NCBI GenBank assembly: GCA_028706255.1
Contig: JAQWBS010000001.1
Coordinates: 263,411 to 327,410 of the forward strand
Length of the DNA stretch: 64,000 nt
Source: Alphaproteobacteria bacterium
GTDB lineage: Bacteria; Pseudomonadota; Alphaproteobacteria; RF32; CAG-239
Direction: 5' to 3'
Shown here: piece after piece, positions 110 to 5,251 of the stretch
How the letters are laid out: each line of letters opens with the position of its first letter
How positions within the stretch are numbered: the first letter of the stretch is position 1
Notes under the pieces: model-generated
Databases searched by the model: none
Told to the model about the DNA's origin: nothing
What the model saw: only the letters and a program-made list of their open reading frames with translations
Program-made: the position numbers and the translations under genes

Positions 110-1048
110 TTAAAAACATCCTTTAATCAAACGTCTATATTTAAGATATCTACCAATTTTGTGTCCTCTCCAAGAGAAAAGCCCTTTTTGATTTAAATCT
201 CTCAATTCTTCAGAAAAAGCCTTAAACATAAAAGGTTTGATATCGGAAGAAGCTCTTGTGCATCTTCCAAGTTGATGTTTTAAGATAATGGGCATAAAAT
301 CTTTTATCAAAAAACGAAGTTCTTTTTTTCTGTCTTTATATCTCTCATAAAGATAGCTTATGCCTTGATGATAATCTTTTATTTGTTTAACCGAAGCTTT
401 TTGATTGGAAATTGAATCAATGTTTTTAGTATATAAATAAAGAGGAATATTTGTCACAACAGACTTAGGATGCTTAAGTAAAACAGCATAAGTGTGAGGA
501 TAATCCTCAAAATGAATATTAGGAATAAATTCTATTCCATGTAATAATTCTTTTTTATAAAGCTTTGTACAAGCACTTACAGGAACCCTATACTTTCCTG
601 AGCAACCACAAAACAAAGGCTTATTTGTTACCTTATATTTTATTTTAGAAAGATTAAAATTCTTATTTGGAATTTCAATCCCATCTGAATCGGCATAATC
701 AATTGTCACTAAATCTGCTGAATGTTTTTGTGAAAGAGTATGTAAAATTTCCAATGTTTGAGGCTGAATAGCATCATCAGAATCTAGGAAGTAAATATAT
801 TCTCCCTTTGCAGATAACACCCCATTATTTCTTGCAACAGATAAACCCCCATTTCTTTGAGTTATAATTTTAACTCTATCATCTTTGGCAGCAAATTTAT
901 TTAAAATTTTGCCACTGCAATCAACAGAACCATCATTTACACAGATAATTTCAAAATCATCAAAGGTTTGGGCAAGAACGGAATCTAAACAACGAGAAAG
1001 ATATTTTTCAACATTATAAACAGGAACGATTATAGAAATTTTTGGCAT
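110..1048 (-). CDS. Family 2 glycosyltransferase
   Basis: 312 residues. The N-terminal GT-A domain (about residues 1-110) is typical of GT2: ISIIVPVYNVEKYL at the start, VNDGSVD near 40, and the metal/nucleotide-sugar-binding DSDD near residue 90. The rest is variable acceptor-side sequence with a basic C-terminus. It probably transfers a sugar from a nucleotide donor during surface polysaccharide or lipopolysaccharide synthesis at the cytoplasmic face of the inner membrane; donor and acceptor cannot be read from sequence. ATG 1048 has a G-rich ribosome site (GGGGG) about 6 bases upstream. A terminator hairpin of a structured RNA lies only 20 bases upstream, so the gene may be expressed by read-through or under leader control. 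Confidence 0.85.
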   Translation of the reverse strand: MPKISIIVPVYNVEKYLSRCLDSVLAQTFDDFEIICVNDGSVDCSGKILNKFAAKDDRVKIITQRNGGLSVARNNGVLSAKGEYIYFLDSDDAIQPQTLEILHTLSQKHSADLVTIDYADSDGIEIPNKNFNLSKIKYKVTNKPLFCGCSGKYRVPVSACTKLYKKELLHGIEFIPNIHFEDYPHTYAVLLKHPKSVVTNIPLYLYTKNIDSISNQKASVKQIKDYHQGISYLYERYKDRKKELRFLIKDFMPIILKHQLGRCTRASSDIKPFMFKAFSEELRDLNQKGLFSWRGHKIGRYLKYRRLIKGCF

Positions 1049-1068: not shown

Positions 1069-1093
1069 AAAAAAACCACCTAAACTAGGTGGT
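1069..1093 (-). terminator. Terminator of the candidate structured RNA
   Basis: On the minus strand an 8-bp stem (ACCACCTA/TAGGTGGT) is followed by seven T. It ends about 20 bases before the start codon of the glycosyltransferase at 1048. Confidence 0.8.
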
Positions 1094-1112
1094 CGGAGAG
1101 TTCACAAAACAT

Positions 1113-1130
1113 ACTTAACAAAATGTTCCT
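1113..1130. repeat. 18-bp direct repeat, copy 1
   Basis: ACTTAACAAAATGTTCCT occurs here and exactly again at 1460-1477. Copy 1 is inside the candidate structured RNA. Each copy holds a small inverted repeat (AACA/TGTT). Confidence 0.7.
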
Positions 1131-1334
1131 TTAAGTCTTTAAAGTAAAAACCTCTGAACATACACTTAAAGCTCCCCGACCGTAAGTCGGGGATATATTG
1201 CCAAATATATATATTAAAAATATATACATCAAACTAACGATGCTATATCTTAGGCACCGTGTTAAGTTAAAGAGCTTGTGAAGGCTCCGCGCCCAGTTCA
1301 GGACACTACTGATTGAATGAGTCCAACCAATGGA

Positions 1335-1365
1335 ATTATAATATATCACCTTAAGTTCAAGTCAA
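1335..1365 (-). promoter_or_regulatory. Promoter of the candidate structured RNA
   Basis: On the minus strand TTGACT (1360-1365) is followed by TATTAT with 16-base spacing (1338-1343), or by a perfect TATAAT (1335-1340) with 19-base spacing. Transcription would start near 1328. Confidence 0.6.
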
Positions 1366-1459: not shown

Positions 1460-1477
1460 ACTTAACAAAATGTTCCT
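1460..1477. repeat. 18-bp direct repeat, copy 2
   Basis: Exact second copy of the element at 1113-1130, located between the terminator of the 1601-2365 gene and the structured-RNA promoter. Confidence 0.7.
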
Positions 1478-1501
1478 CTTTTTGTTTTTAAAAACAGGAA
1501 A

Positions 1502-1600: not shown

Positions 1601-2365
1601 TTATCCAAACAGTTTGGATAGAACATCAGACACGCCAAAGTCAAACATAGCCTCTTTGGTACGAGAAGTGGTTTTAACCCCTAAATCTCCATCAACTTTT
1701 AGTGCAGGAGAATAATCATAGGAATTATTCAATCCTGTTTGCAAAGCTGAAACATCTGAATTTTTGGAAGACATAGATTCTGAAATTTTATCAAATCCCT
1801 CACCAACACTCAAACCATCTTTCGTCTTTGCCTCAACACGCTCAGAGGCTATTGAAGTTTTAGCAACTGGTTGGACTTGTCTTCCCGTTGCATCAACTGA
1901 ACTTTCTTTGCCATAAACTTCCTCATTCCAAGAAGATATTTTATTATTAAGTTTTTGATTTAAATTCTTATCTTTACTCTCAAACCAAGTGTATCTTGAC
2001 GTATCCTTAATTTCTTGCGCTGTAATATCCTTATTCTTCTTATATAAGATATCCTCATGCTCGTTATTATTTAATTTAAATTTTTCCTTAAACCTTTCTC
2101 GTAAATTTTTATTCCGCCACTCTTTCTCCCTTTTTGACTCTTCCTCTTTTTCAAGAGATTCCTGCCTTTCCTTTTCAAACCTATCTCGAAAGGGTATCGA
2201 TGATTTTGCTTTTTCTTCCAATCGTTTAAGTTCCTTTTCATCTTGCCCACCTAGATTTATATAATTTAGTGCATGATTATCAAAATCTAATATCCTTTTT
2301 ACTGAAAGAGAGTTTTCAACTGCTGCACTGTTATTGACACTATTTGCTATTTTTCTTACATCCAT
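1601..2365 (-). CDS. Putative peptidoglycan-binding-domain protein, cassette 1
   Basis: 254 residues, function unknown. There is no signal peptide or membrane segment. Residues about 55-110 are extremely charged (E/K/R) and probably helical or coiled-coil. The C-terminus holds a short peptidoglycan-binding-like module: ALQTGLNN, then LKVDGDLGVKT and TKEAM, the pattern of PGBD-1 helices around a VDGDxGxKT turn. It ends in the tail VSDVLSKLFG, shared with the paralog at 3078-3803. From about residue 68 the two paralogs are nearly identical, while the N-terminal parts differ strongly. ATG 2365 has a GGAG site (2374-2377). A terminator hairpin lies between the upstream ankyrin gene and this start. 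I infer a partner of the ankyrin protein, perhaps an effector or cell-wall-associated factor, but nothing proves toxicity or secretion. Confidence 0.7.
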   Translation of the reverse strand: MDVRKIANSVNNSAAVENSLSVKRILDFDNHALNYINLGGQDEKELKRLEEKAKSSIPFRDRFEKERQESLEKEEESKREKEWRNKNLRERFKEKFKLNNNEHEDILYKKNKDITAQEIKDTSRYTWFESKDKNLNQKLNNKISSWNEEVYGKESSVDATGRQVQPVAKTSIASERVEAKTKDGLSVGEGFDKISESMSSKNSDVSALQTGLNNSYDYSPALKVDGDLGVKTTSRTKEAMFDFGVSDVLSKLFG

Positions 2366-2383
2366 TTTGTTTTCTCCATAAAA

Positions 2384-2407
2384 AAAAGAGAACCTGAATT
2401 CTCTTTT
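2384..2407 (-). terminator. Intra-cassette terminator 1
   Basis: Stem AAAAGAGAA/TTCTCTTTT with a T-run on the minus strand sits between the ankyrin stop (2430) and the ribosome site of the next gene (2365). Equivalent hairpins occur in the other two cassettes. Confidence 0.75.
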
Positions 2408-2429
2408 TGCTAATTAGTTAATTATTTGA

Positions 2430-3011
2430 TTAATATAGTTTTAGTAGTTCTTTATTTCTTTTTTGTTGAGACACCCAATTGTTATCTTCACATTCCTTAA
2501 AATTTGCCAACAATTTTTTTTCTTGTGGATCACCACTTAGCGTCGCCCCTCTATCAACGAGAAGTTTAGAACTTTCACAGTCTCTTATTTGTAAAGCAAC
2601 CGCCAAAGGCTTAAACTTGTCATTCAGTAAAAGATTAACATCAGCACCATTATCTATCAAAAAATTTATCAATTTCTGATCATGCAAAAAAATGGCATGA
2701 AAAAGAGGCGTAAAACTCTCATTTCTTCCCTGATTAACACTAAAGCCTTTTTTAATAAGAAACGTTAGAAAATTATAATCAATGGCGTTTCTTTTTCTCA
2801 TAACATATTCACTTACTAAATTTAGTTTAGGATAAAGGTTATTTGGATCAACGTCTTTTTCTTCAACAAAGAAGGTTATTGCATCTCTATCTTGAGAAAA
2901 AAATGCTGAAATTAAACCTATTCTATCTTTTACTATAAAATATAAAACACCAAGGGCTATAACTAGAATCCCAAGGACAATCCCTAAAATTTTCAATATC
3001 TTTTTCAACAT
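2430..3011 (-). CDS. Membrane-anchored ankyrin-repeat protein, cassette 1
   Basis: 193 residues. The N-terminus MLKKILKILGIVLG continues into a hydrophobic segment (about residues 5-27) that would anchor the protein in the inner membrane. The rest is soluble, with degenerate ankyrin repeats: ESFTPLFHAIFLHDQKLINFL followed by IDNGADVN (near 104-132), then FKPLAVAL with LLVDRGATL. With a Lys-rich N-terminus the ankyrin domain is probably periplasmic (inferred). The first 13 residues are almost the same in the three paralogs at 2430, 3865 and 4682, while the ankyrin surface differs, as expected for partner-specific binding such as immunity or inhibitor proteins. It is the first gene of its cassette, behind the conserved promoter block at 3029-3060. 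Confidence 0.75.
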   Translation of the reverse strand: MLKKILKILGIVLGILVIALGVLYFIVKDRIGLISAFFSQDRDAITFFVEEKDVDPNNLYPKLNLVSEYVMRKRNAIDYNFLTFLIKKGFSVNQGRNESFTPLFHAIFLHDQKLINFLIDNGADVNLLLNDKFKPLAVALQIRDCESSKLLVDRGATLSGDPQEKKLLANFKECEDNNWVSQQKRNKELLKLY

Positions 3012-3028
3012 AACTTTTCCACTTAAAG

Positions 3029-3060
3029 TTTATAATACAATTAAGTTATCTTAATTCTAG
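3029..3060 (-). promoter_or_regulatory. Conserved promoter/inverted repeat upstream of ankyrin gene 1
   Basis: The inverted repeat AATTAAGTTATCTTAATT (3039-3056, 7-bp arms, 4-base centre) lies directly upstream of a -10-like TATTAT on the minus strand (3032-3037). The sequence from the ankyrin start codon back through the repeat is almost identical in three places (here, 4451-4484 and 5269-5301), which argues for shared regulation. A repressor site between -35 and -10 is an inference. Confidence 0.6.
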
Positions 3061-3077
3061 ACATTAAACAATAAAAA

Positions 3078-3803
3078 TCAGCCAAACAGTTTGGATAGAA
3101 CATCAGACACGCCAAAGTCAAACATAGCTTCTTTGGTACGAGAAGTGGTTTTAGGTCCTAAGTCACCATCAATTTTTAGTGCAGGAGAATAATCATAAGA
3201 ATTATTCAATCCTGTTTGTAAAGCTGAAACATCTACATTTTTAGAAGACATAGATTCTGAAATTTTATCAAATCCTTCTCCAACGCTCAAACCATCTTTG
3301 GTCTTTGCTTCAACACGTTTAGAGGCTAGTGAAGTTTTAGCAACCGGTTGAACCTGCCTTCCCGTTGCATCAACTGAGCTTTCTTTTCCATAAACATCCT
3401 CATTCCACGAAGAAACTTTGTTATTAAGCTTTTGATTTAAATTCTTATCTTTACTCTCAAACCAAGTGTATCTCGAAGTATCCTTAATTTCCCCCTCTGT
3501 GATATCCTTATTCTTCTTATATAAGATATCCTCATGTTCATTATTGTTTAATTTAAATTTTTCCTTGAATCTTTCTCGTAAACTTTTATTCCGCCACTCC
3601 TTCTCCCTTTTTTTCTCTTCCTCTTTTTCAAGAGATTCTTGATTATCATAATAAAATGGATTAATTTTTTTTGCTCTATTCAAAGCCTTATTATAATCTT
3701 CTTTAGTAGCATTTTCTCCTTTATCAAAAAGTTTACTTCCATCATCAAAATCCATAAATTTTCTTGTACTTTTTAGTACCTTTCTCTCAATATCAAATAC
3801 CAT
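3078..3803 (-). CDS. Putative peptidoglycan-binding-domain protein, cassette 2
   Basis: 241 residues from ATG 3803, preferred over an upstream in-frame start at 3863 because AAAGGG lies about 8 bases ahead of it and the same arrangement recurs in cassette 3. The N-terminal 55 residues differ from the 1601-2365 paralog. From QESLEKEEE onward the two are nearly identical: a charged helical region, the central VDATGRQVQPVAKTS stretch, then a peptidoglycan-binding-like module (ALQTGLNN, LKIDGDLGPKT) and the tail VSDVLSKLFG. No signal peptide. A terminator hairpin (3823-3849) separates it from the ankyrin gene just upstream. Function is unknown; pairing with the ankyrin gene suggests they act together. 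Confidence 0.7.
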   Translation of the reverse strand: MVFDIERKVLKSTRKFMDFDDGSKLFDKGENATKEDYNKALNRAKKINPFYYDNQESLEKEEEKKREKEWRNKSLRERFKEKFKLNNNEHEDILYKKNKDITEGEIKDTSRYTWFESKDKNLNQKLNNKVSSWNEDVYGKESSVDATGRQVQPVAKTSLASKRVEAKTKDGLSVGEGFDKISESMSSKNVDVSALQTGLNNSYDYSPALKIDGDLGPKTTSRTKEAMFDFGVSDVLSKLFG

Positions 3804-3822
3804 TTTTTTCCCTTTAAAAATA

Positions 3823-3849
3823 AAAGAGAGGCTCTTATAGCCTCTCTTT
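3823..3849 (-). terminator. Intra-cassette terminator 2
   Basis: An 11-bp perfect stem (AAAGAGAGGCT/AGCCTCTCTTT) is followed on the minus strand by TTTTATTTTT, between the ankyrin stop (3865) and the AAAGGG ribosome site of the gene starting at 3803. Confidence 0.8.
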
Positions 3850-3864
3850 AAATTATTATTCACA

Positions 3865-4434
3865 TTATTTAAAAATTAATTTAGCATCACCAGAAACCCA
3901 GTCATATTTCTTGCAAATATTAATCCAGTTTTTTAGTTTTTCCTGACTTTTATCTTCATCCAGTGTTGCACCTTTATCTATTAAAAACTTGGACATGTCA
4001 CAATTATATAAACGCAATGCACCACCCAACGGGGTTATCCCTTTTTTATTAGAAAAGTTAATATCCATTTTTTTGTCCTTAATCAACAACTCAACTAAGT
4101 CTTTTCTATCAAGCAAAACAGCTGAAAGAAGAGGTGTTAAATCTCCTGTTGGATTGATATTCGGGTTAACCCCTTTATCTAATAAAAATCTTACAAACTC
4201 GATATCAACCTTTTCTCTGTAATTAGCCATATAGACTTGAATATAATTTCCAAGATAAACATTATTAGGATCAATTTTTTTCTCATCAACATAATAACTA
4301 AAAGATTCTTTATCCTCATCAGTAATCGCAACAATTAGAGATATTTCATCACGAACTAAATAATACAAAACACCAACTGCCATAATCATTACAACAAGGA
4401 CAATTCCTAAAATTTTCAATATCTTTTTCAACAT
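3865..4434 (-). CDS. Membrane-anchored ankyrin-repeat protein, cassette 2
   Basis: 189 residues, paralog of 2430-3011 and 4682-5251. MLKKILKILGIVLVVMIMAVGVL gives a single N-terminal membrane anchor, followed by ankyrin-type helices: FVRFLLDKGVNPN, LTPLLSAVLLDRKDLVELLI, ITPLGGALRLYNCDMSKFLIDKG. It ends with the shared WVS near the C-terminus (CKKYDWVSGDAK). It probably presents the ankyrin surface on the outer side of the inner membrane (inferred) and follows its own copy of the promoter/inverted-repeat block. Sequence differences among paralogs concentrate in the repeat surfaces. Confidence 0.75.
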   Translation of the reverse strand: MLKKILKILGIVLVVMIMAVGVLYYLVRDEISLIVAITDEDKESFSYYVDEKKIDPNNVYLGNYIQVYMANYREKVDIEFVRFLLDKGVNPNINPTGDLTPLLSAVLLDRKDLVELLIKDKKMDINFSNKKGITPLGGALRLYNCDMSKFLIDKGATLDEDKSQEKLKNWINICKKYDWVSGDAKLIFK

Positions 4435-4450
4435 AACTTTTCCACTTAAA

Positions 4451-4484
4451 GTTTATAATATAATTAAGTTATCTTAATTTTAGT
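4451..4484 (-). promoter_or_regulatory. Conserved promoter/inverted repeat upstream of ankyrin gene 2
   Basis: Second copy of the block: inverted repeat at 4462-4479 next to a -10-like TATTAT on the minus strand, followed by the same leader up to the ankyrin ATG at 4434. Confidence 0.6.
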
Positions 4485-4500
4485 GATTTAACAATATAAA

Positions 4501-4606
4501 TCAGCCAAACAGTTTGAATATAACGTCGGACACTCCCAAATCCTTTCCCAAAATTTCCAAGCCTTGGAATTCTATCACTAATATGTTTTTTATTATTTTC
4601 ACTCAT
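4501..4606 (-). pseudogene. Degenerate remnant of a peptidoglycan-binding-like gene, cassette 3
   Basis: The position expected for the third partner gene holds only about 106 bases. ATG 4606 keeps an upstream AAGGG and encodes MSENNKKHISDRIPRLGNFG. About 60 bases into the frame, a +1 shift enters the frame encoding KDLGVSDVIFKLFG and a stop at 4501-4503. That tail matches the VSDVLSKLFG ends of the two intact paralogs. The middle of the gene is gone, so this is a deleted and frameshifted relic. The downstream sequence matches that after the intact genes. Confidence 0.75.
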
Positions 4607-4629
4607 TTATTTTTTCCCTTTAAAATAAA

Positions 4630-4654
4630 AATAGAGATGAAAATCATCTCTATT
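4630..4654 (-). terminator. Intra-cassette terminator 3
   Basis: An 11-bp perfect stem (AATAGAGATGA/TCATCTCTATT) with a T-rich tail on the minus strand, between the third ankyrin gene and the partner remnant. Position matches the other two cassettes. Confidence 0.8.
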
Positions 4655-4681
4655 TAGGTTGTTACATTATATAGCTAAATG

Positions 4682-5251
4682 CTATTCTAAAATTATTTTG
4701 TTATCACTAGAAACCCATTTGTTGTTTTTACACTTTTCTAGCCTATATTCCATCAGATCTTGGCTCTTACCTGCTTGTAAGCTTAATCCTTTATCTATTA
4801 GAATTTTTGCAATTTCACAATTAGAAAAGACAAGAGCAACGCCTAAAGGATTCATATTTTTATAATTAATAACATTAAGGTCTGCACCATTTTCAATATA
4901 AAGCTTAACAATTTCAAGATTATCAAGTAAGAATGAATAGGTCAAAGGTGTTGCTATTTTTCTTTGCTTATAATTTGGATCAATTCCTTTATCTAGCATA
5001 TACTTCACAAACTCGGGCTTACTTTCTTTCTTATAAACAACTAAGTATAGATCATGTAAATTGAACCAAGCATATAAATCATTCGGATTAAACCCTTTTT
5101 CATCTATGTAATATGCTAAAGTATCCTTATCTTCATCAATTACAGCGTTCATAACCGTAATCTGGTCATTTAACAAATAACGTAAAAATCCTAAAGCGAC
5201 AATCATCACAACAAAGACAATTCCTAAAATTTTCAATATCTTTTTCAACAT
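4682..5251 (-). CDS. Membrane-anchored ankyrin-repeat protein, cassette 3
   Basis: 189 residues. N-terminal anchor MLKKILKILGIVFVVMIVALGFL, then ankyrin-type repeats (FVKYMLDKGIDPN, ATPLTYSFLLDNLEIVKLYIENGADLN, MNPLGVALVFSNCEIAKILIDKG) and the family C-terminus with WVSSDNK. Its partner gene downstream is reduced to a remnant, yet this frame is intact. An immunity-type gene kept after loss of its cognate partner would look like this (inference). It is the promoter-proximal gene of the third cassette. Confidence 0.75.
   Translation of the reverse strand: MLKKILKILGIVFVVMIVALGFLRYLLNDQITVMNAVIDEDKDTLAYYIDEKGFNPNDLYAWFNLHDLYLVVYKKESKPEFVKYMLDKGIDPNYKQRKIATPLTYSFLLDNLEIVKLYIENGADLNVINYKNMNPLGVALVFSNCEIAKILIDKGLSLQAGKSQDLMEYRLEKCKNNKWVSSDNKIILE

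What the first reader, a model, noticed from the sequence alone, without database searches (positions are those of the whole stretch)
1069..1365. Unassigned structured RNA upstream of a glycosyltransferase
A promoter, about 260 bases with a closing 7-bp helix, strong internal hairpins and a terminator are visible, but no coding frame of quality. It ends 20 bases before a start codon, so it could be a free small RNA (6S-like) or a long cis-regulator. No known family core was recognised.
Basis: partly seen in the sequence, partly recalled or inferred. Interest (0 to 1): 0.58.

Follow-up and report, generated by a model that had tools for sequence, protein, structure and literature searches.

The report
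C4-like switch RNA before glycosyltransferase gene
The stretch encodes a real, elaborately folded RNA that looks like an on/off switch in front of a sugar-transferase gene, related in build to an RNA that phages use to control one of their genes and repeated many times in a group of gut bacteria in front of mostly surface or exported proteins.

Summary
Rfam has no match here. The genome's 6S RNA lies elsewhere. The RNA belongs to a dispersed class: at least one copy in 138/153 genomes of the order and 40/385 of the class, at least 32 copies in some. Structure is supported by covariation, including two long-range helices whose 7-8-mers vary between copies yet stay self-complementary. These helices reveal the type: an upstream a1/b1 segment, a three-arm core with b' loop and a' strand, and RCC after the closing helix, as in phage C4 antisense RNAs and Rfam's sRNA-Xcc1. 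In phages such elements precede antirepressor genes and carry a second a/b copy at the Shine-Dalgarno. In this family that copy is missing; an intrinsic terminator replaces it, overlapping the closing helix in 115/120 copies. Genes start within 60 nt in 113/128 copies and are enriched for exported or surface proteins. Best reading: a chromosomal, amplified, terminator-based variant of the C4-type bistable leader. The trigger is unknown; no transcript data were available.

The parts
1338..1365 (-). sigma70-type promoter-like site (TTGACT, 16 nt, TATTAT)
   Evidence: consensus match only, start site about 1331 inferred
1308..1331 (-). 5' hairpin, sequence variable between copies
   Evidence: fold
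1289..1306 (-). P1 hairpin (GUGUCC..GGGCGC; AGUACC..GGUACGG in relatives)
1272..1287 (-). P2 hairpin GAGC-loop-GCUC; its loop is a1
1275..1282 (-). a1: UUCACAAG, pairs with a' (long-range helix P2L)
   Evidence: own score >=6 in 113/116 copies, swapped 472/2320
1260..1266 (-). b1: CUUAACA, pairs with b' (long-range helix P3L)
   Evidence: own 104/108, swapped 662/2160
1238..1259 (-). P4 hairpin; loop may pair with AUAUC before P6 (pseudoknot)
   Evidence: complement of the 5 nt at core start present upstream in 85/128 copies
1198..1233 (-). P5 hairpin, variable
1173..1193 (-). P6 hairpin CCCCGA..GGUCGGGG, rival of helix A
   Evidence: 95% of cells paired but no covariation in 24 copies; wider set
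1172..1181 (-). strand X (GGUCGGGGAG): 5' strand of helix A and 3' strand of P6
1129..1171 (-). P7 arm with P8 (1141-1155) and conserved internal loop GUAUGUUCAG (1154-1163) / AAAG
   Evidence: covariation
1107..1128 (-). P9 arm, loop holds b' (UGUUAAG, 1114-1120)
1101..1108 (-). a' strand UUUGUGAA
1091..1100 (-). A' strand CUCUCCGACC, closes helix A with X; its last 4 nt also start the terminator
1088..1090 (-). ACC after the closing helix (RCC in 107/116 copies), RNase P-substrate look
   Evidence: RNase P role inferred
1069..1094 (-). intrinsic terminator (stem 1094-1074, U7)
   Evidence: class-wide
110..1048 (-). downstream gene, GT2 glycosyltransferase, 312 aa
   Evidence: Pfam PF00535 E 1.6e-35
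1460..1492 (-). possible remnant of a second copy (33 nt, 85% identical to the b'/P9 region)
   Evidence: blastn E 0.01; may be chance

Best explanation
A cis-acting, terminator-based variant of the phage C4 antisense-RNA leader. Shown by sequence: the 5' part carries a1 (loop of hairpin P2) and b1, which pair with a' and b' of a three-arm core built like C4 RNA (helix A closing; P7/P8; P9 with b' in its loop; a' between P9 and A'; RCC after A'). Strand X can pair with the CCCCGA before it (P6) or with A' (helix A); the last bases of A' are also the first of an intrinsic terminator directly before the gene. Inferred: when a1/b1 hold a'/b' and P6 holds X, A' is free, the terminator forms and the glycosyltransferase is off; when the C4-type core closes (helix A), the terminator loses its base and the polymerase reads on. 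In the phage form the same core blocks or frees the Shine-Dalgarno instead. What tips the balance (ligand, protein, RNase P, a short RNA in trans as with IsrK, or polymerase speed) is unknown.
For: Class: 138/153 genomes of the order and 40/385 of the class have at least one copy. Core covariation: 97.1% of cells paired, 17/31 pairs with double changes, 63 such cells against 16.3 shuffled. a1:a' 113/116 against 472/2320 swapped; b1:b' 104/108 against 662/2160; inside one genome 39/41 own against 33/120 with other copies. Terminator overlapping A' in 115/120 copies, by exactly 4 nt in 107. Gene start within 60 nt in 113/128. The same a/b architecture in RF02221 elements (39/40 and 38/40 upstream) and at the RBS as well in 8/8 gammaproteobacterial loci. 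In 7 of the 8 an annotated gene follows; 6 are antirepressor types by name, the seventh by Pfam. An Alphaproteobacterial element's 5' part hits Rfam c4-a1b1, 30.2 bits, E 0.001. C4 in an E. coli prophage shows the same order of parts.
Against: Rfam C4 (RF01695) does not hit the window copy at any threshold used, and the c4-a1b1 match is below its gathering score of 46.7. R1 does not find C4 in L303. No a2/b2 copy downstream in this family: b' 17/108 against 271/2160 swapped. P6 shows no covariation inside the 24-copy alignment. The nested energy model puts the P6 state below the helix A state in 112/115 copies, mean 15.5 kcal/mol, pseudoknots not counted, so helix A needs help. No transcript or termination data.
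Confidence: 0.6

Rival explanations
1. A free small RNA: the transcript ends at the terminator, RNase P may cut before X, and a C4-like RNA acts in trans on other messages; the gene behind it is a neighbour only.
For: Strong terminator in 115/120; sRNA-Xcc1 is a Northern-confirmed 88-nt sRNA with RACE-mapped ends (PMC2996969, passages); multi-copy C4-like sRNAs are expressed and look processed in A. baumannii (PMC5320573, passages). The third own copy (L278) has no ORF of 60 aa within 140 nt.
Against: ORF within 60 nt in 113/128 copies; the own genome holds only one further place matching the a1-b1 pattern, at G000:C4:286590, besides the element itself (exact matches only).
Confidence: 0.2
2. 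A metabolite-binding riboswitch on a C4-like scaffold, with the conserved P7 internal loop (GUAUGUYCAG / UAAAGG) as pocket.
For: The P7 loop stays nearly fixed from this family to distant ones, while flanking helices covary; rival helices plus terminator look like an expression platform; genes form a surface-biased set.
Against: C4, the closest architecture, is not known to bind a ligand (recalled). c-di-GMP is unlikely: G004, G085 and G127 (16, 12 and 14 copies) show no GGDEF match.
Confidence: 0.15
3. 6S RNA or another known Rfam family missed by the reader.
For: A long rod with internal loop resembles 6S at first sight.
Against: 6S found elsewhere at 55.9 bits; no Rfam hit on this copy.
Confidence: 0.01
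4. A repeated DNA element whose fold is a by-product.
For: Dispersed and multi-copy.
Against: Copies differ by compensatory changes and keep terminator and gene spacing.
Confidence: 0.04

Closest known systems
C4 antisense RNA of phages P1/P7 (Rfam RF01695, with c4-a1b1 RF03163)
   Same: Order of parts a1/b1 - core with b' loop in the second arm and a' before the closing strand - RCC; copy-specific a/b pairing; C4 seen beside an sRNA-Xcc1 element in one prophage, L303.
   Different: Here no a2/b2 at the RBS, an intrinsic terminator instead; P4-P5-P6 inserted between b1 and core; different P7 arm; chromosomal, many copies, before surface genes; RF01695 model does not hit.
sRNA-Xcc1 (Rfam RF02221)
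   Same: Core topology; 17 of 103 class places hit by both models; upstream a1/b1 in 39/40 and 38/40; L106 and the third own copy L278 are intermediates.
   Different: P7 internal loop is AAUACAAUA/GGAAUA instead of GUAUGUYCAG/UAAAGG; RF02221 does not hit the window copy; described in print as a trans-acting sRNA (title of Chen 2011, not held).
IsrK/AnrP leader of Salmonella prophage Gifsy-1 (RF01394)
   Same: 5' piece with terminator in front of an antirepressor operon; two rival structures of the leader, one silent and one active (PMC4825925, passages).
   Different: Translational, with trans activation by the short RNA; no such short RNA shown here.
Group 1 C4-like sRNAs of Acinetobacter baumannii
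   Same: Many C4-like copies in one chromosome, apparently processed at a GG site (PMC5320573, passages).
   Different: Described as sRNAs with unknown targets; the passages seen do not describe terminator leaders.

Membership tests
C4 antisense RNA (RF01695) | scores above the Rfam gathering score | tested here: not met
   no C4 hit on the window copy
C4 antisense RNA (RF01695) | closing helix, two inner arms, b' in loop of second arm, a' before the closing 3' strand | tested here: met
   covariation of helix A, P7, P9 compared with C4 alignment
C4 antisense RNA (RF01695) | a1/b1 upstream complementary to a'/b' | tested here: met
   113/116 and 104/108 against swapped controls
C4 antisense RNA (RF01695) | a2/b2 at the ribosome-binding site of the gene behind it | tested here: not met
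   b' downstream 17/108 against 271/2160 swapped; a' 31/116 against 374/2320
C4 antisense RNA (RF01695) | processed by RNase P at the 5' end of the closing helix | not testable with these tools
   only the RCC after A' fits, 107/116
C4 antisense RNA (RF01695) | precedes an antirepressor operon | tested here: not met
   GT2 glycosyltransferase here
sRNA-Xcc1 (RF02221) | scores above gathering score | tested here: not met
   met by another class member, L106, 56.2 bits
sRNA-Xcc1 (RF02221) | AAUACAAUA internal loop of the first arm | tested here: not met
   GUAUGUUCAG instead
6S RNA (RF00013) | Rfam 6S score at this place | tested here: not met
   the only 6S match in the genome is at G000:C8:92891-93047
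attenuator/riboswitch-type leader (functional kind) | two mutually exclusive helices, one of them a terminator, directly before a gene | tested here: met
riboswitch (ligand-binding) | binds a ligand and switches | not testable with these tools
   needs probing and transcription assays

The most novel reading that the evidence does not exclude
A phage-type C4 RNA was domesticated in gut Alphaproteobacteria, lost its Shine-Dalgarno target, gained a terminator and a 5' P4-P6 domain, and was copied in front of up to dozens of surface and exported-protein genes, so that one RNA scaffold with a fixed internal loop reads a single unknown signal for a whole surface regulon, while hypervariable a/b pairs keep the copies from cross-talking.
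Probability: 0.3. Interest if true: 0.82.

Novelty: new variant of a known kind. Interest (0 to 1): 0.62.

Why it matters
It would turn an unassigned hairpin region into a regulon-wide switch with a testable mechanism, join sRNA-Xcc1 (in no Rfam clan) to the C4 system, give C4-like chromosomal RNAs a plausible cis role, and point to how small gut Alphaproteobacteria, some without detectable GGDEF proteins, may control surface sugars, adhesins and pilins.

Tried and rejected
6S RNA: rejected. c-di-GMP riboswitch: disfavoured, no GGDEF match in G004, G085, G127, G338, G508, G219 though all carry copies (23 of 30 genomes had a match). A Shine-Dalgarno target in this family: looked for and not found. 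A trans target in the own genome: one further exact pattern match, probably chance, not followed. P6 by covariation: none in the 24-copy alignment; wider sets support it moderately (RF02221 set 28/40 against 218/800; class set, 26 of 35 used, mean 7.28 against 6.33). Plasmid collection: no match to this RNA; phages: one unverified faecal record. IMG/VR exact pattern: none. The first idea that IsrK hits would lie on our element was wrong; isrK lies before C4 in L303.

Dropped rows and limits: the complementarity tests used copies matched by my own text patterns: 116 of 127 for a' and 108 for b'; 116 of 128; 120 of 128; 115. The score cut of 6 was my choice. In one search the b' window includes part of the P9 stem, so its control is high (397/800). 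Downstream-gene counts take the longest ORF starting within 300 nt; the Pfam census scanned 110 of 113. The control ORFs are ATG-started ORFs of at least 90 aa in the same loci and may include false ones. Copy numbers are capped by scored candidates (32). Genomes are an even draw, some incomplete.

Full report
Observation. The 263-nt RNA folds at -91.8 kcal/mol, z = -7.06. Rfam release 15 has no gathering-level hit in the window and nothing on this RNA up to E = 10 except a partial 11.5-bit match to Hrs13 at E = 9.3. The genome's own 6S RNA is elsewhere.

It is a class. blastn found a second copy in the genome (69% identity, E 1.3e-17) and copies in most relatives. A covariance model, R1, of the 3' core from 24 copies finds at least one copy in 92 of 101 genomes of the family, 138 of 153 of the order (the only genome outside the family had none) and 40 of 385 of the class, in 26 family labels by my count. 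A sister genome of the same genus, G001, has none. Named records carrying the core pattern are mostly gut and rumen Alphaproteobacteria MAGs (69 stretches); that the class is Alphaproteobacteria is inferred from this.

Structure. On the 24-copy alignment the core pairs in 97.1% of cells, with 17 of 31 pairs showing changes on both sides and 63 such cells against 16.3 in shuffles; slid versions fall to 53% or less. Two long-range helices were tested by comparing each copy's 3' strand with its own upstream region and with those of other copies: a1:a' scores at least 6 in 113 of 116 own against 472 of 2320 swapped; b1:b' in 104 of 108 against 662 of 2160. The b pair is mostly a perfect 7-mer that varies from copy to copy (window CUUAACA/UGUUAAG). 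Inside single genomes own pairs succeed in 39 of 41, pairs with other copies of the same genome in 33 of 120, the chance level. So copies are largely self-specific.

Switch anatomy. Strand X (GGUCGGGGAG) can pair with CCCCGA upstream (P6) or with A' (CUCUCCGACC, helix A). P6 is 95% paired but almost invariant in the 24-copy set, so it has no covariation there. In distant members the P6 strand becomes a full mimic of A' (CUCCUUGACC in L093), and support is moderate overall. In 115 of 120 copies a perfect-stem terminator starts inside A', overlapping it by 4 nt in 107. Helix A and the full terminator therefore exclude each other. Nested energies favour the P6 state in 112 of 115 copies, but the two pseudoknots of the helix A state are not counted. 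Which state a1/b1 favours is inferred: in the minimum-energy fold they close the P6 state together with GGAG:CUCC.

Genes behind it. An ORF starts within 60 nt in 113 of 128 copies, median 24 (of 125 with an ORF). Of these 113 proteins 77 have a strongly hydrophobic N-terminal stretch, against 48 of 204 other ORFs in the same loci. Of 110 scanned, the commonest Pfam families are GT2 (11), autotransporter beta-domain (9), OMP beta-barrel (6), SNase (6), BspA-type LRR (5), PilS/Bundlin (4 each) and HTH_3 (3). c-di-GMP as common signal is unlikely, since some copy-rich genomes show no GGDEF match.

What it is related to. One class member, L106, is hit by R1 (39.8 bits) and by Rfam's sRNA-Xcc1 (56.2, cut-off 53) at one place. 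Over the class, 17 of 103 R1 places are also on the RF02221 list, including a third copy in the own genome, G000:C3:26836-26957. RF02221 elements have the same upstream pairing (a' 39/40 against 164/800; b' 38/40 against 397/800), and a subset repeats it downstream (b' 24/40 against 315/800; a' 18/40 against 124/800), with the Shine-Dalgarno inside b2 where I read it by eye. In eight gammaproteobacterial phage, prophage and plasmid-collection loci both strands match upstream and downstream in 8 of 8 (swapped: 19 to 30 of 56). Where a gene is annotated behind the element, it is Ant, KilA-N, ORF6N or BRO in 6 of 7, and a hypothetical protein with a Bro-N domain in the seventh; L304 carries no annotation.

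This is the layout of the phage C4 antisense RNA. One Alphaproteobacterial element's 5' part (L119) hits Rfam c4-a1b1 at 30.2 bits, E 0.001, below its cut-off. In E. coli E2855 a prophage holds isrK, C4 and a rha gene in a row, and, read by eye, isrK carries a1 and b1, C4 carries a' and b', and a2 and b2 cover the Shine-Dalgarno of rha. That C4 partly covers the ribosome-binding site of its target with b', takes specificity from a', and is cut by RNase P is from PMC5320573 (passages). For IsrK, two rival leader structures, one silent and one active, were shown experimentally (PMC4825925, passages). In the window's family the a2/b2 target is absent and the terminator stands in its place.

Verdict. 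The window RNA works like a C4-type leader but should not be filed as a C4 or sRNA-Xcc1 member: neither model hits it and the RBS target is not met. It is a new variant of a known kind. In print I found no link between sRNA-Xcc1 and C4 beyond one paper that lists both separately, no paper with both 'C4 antisense RNA' and 'Alphaproteobacteria', and nothing on such a leader class in the listings; the library lacks most subscription papers, and Chen 2011 on sRNA-Xcc1 is not held.

Noticed in passing
L278 (G000:C3), about 2360-2443 minus: Third own copy, hit by both R1 and RF02221, with a1/b1 and terminator but no ORF of 60 aa within 140 nt; may be a free RNA.
   Followed up: partly
L303 962-1149 (E. 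coli E2855): isrK followed by C4 and a rha gene: isrK looks like the a1/b1-plus-terminator piece of a C4 system. Read by eye only.
   Followed up: partly
L108-L127, L298-L305: Many sRNA-Xcc1-type elements carry a terminator-like hairpin (CCGC..GCGG, U-run) between b1 and the core, which would give a short a1/b1 RNA.
   Followed up: no
G245 (L112, L282, L283, L285): A genome with 11 RF02221-type matches; four of those looked at precede similar-looking small proteins; the two scanned (L112, L282) have no PHROGs match.
   Followed up: no
L127, L296, L075: Elements directly before DNA methylase-like genes (Pfam checked for L127 only).
   Followed up: no
window 1601-5251 minus: Alternating paralogues: two proteins with a shared C-terminus (1601-2365, 3078-3863) and three ankyrin-like membrane proteins (2430-3011, 3865-4434, 4682-5251). 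Read by eye.
   Followed up: no
window 1460-1492 minus: 33 nt, 85% identical to the P9/b' region, upstream of the promoter; possible decayed tandem copy.
   Followed up: no
L277 5001-5134 (MT835859.1): An unverified 'Bacteriophage sp.' faecal record holds the RNA at 75% identity; could be bacterial DNA.
   Followed up: no
L225, L255, L236: Core pattern in MAGs titled Gastranaerophilales and Erysipelotrichaceae; likely binning errors.
   Followed up: no
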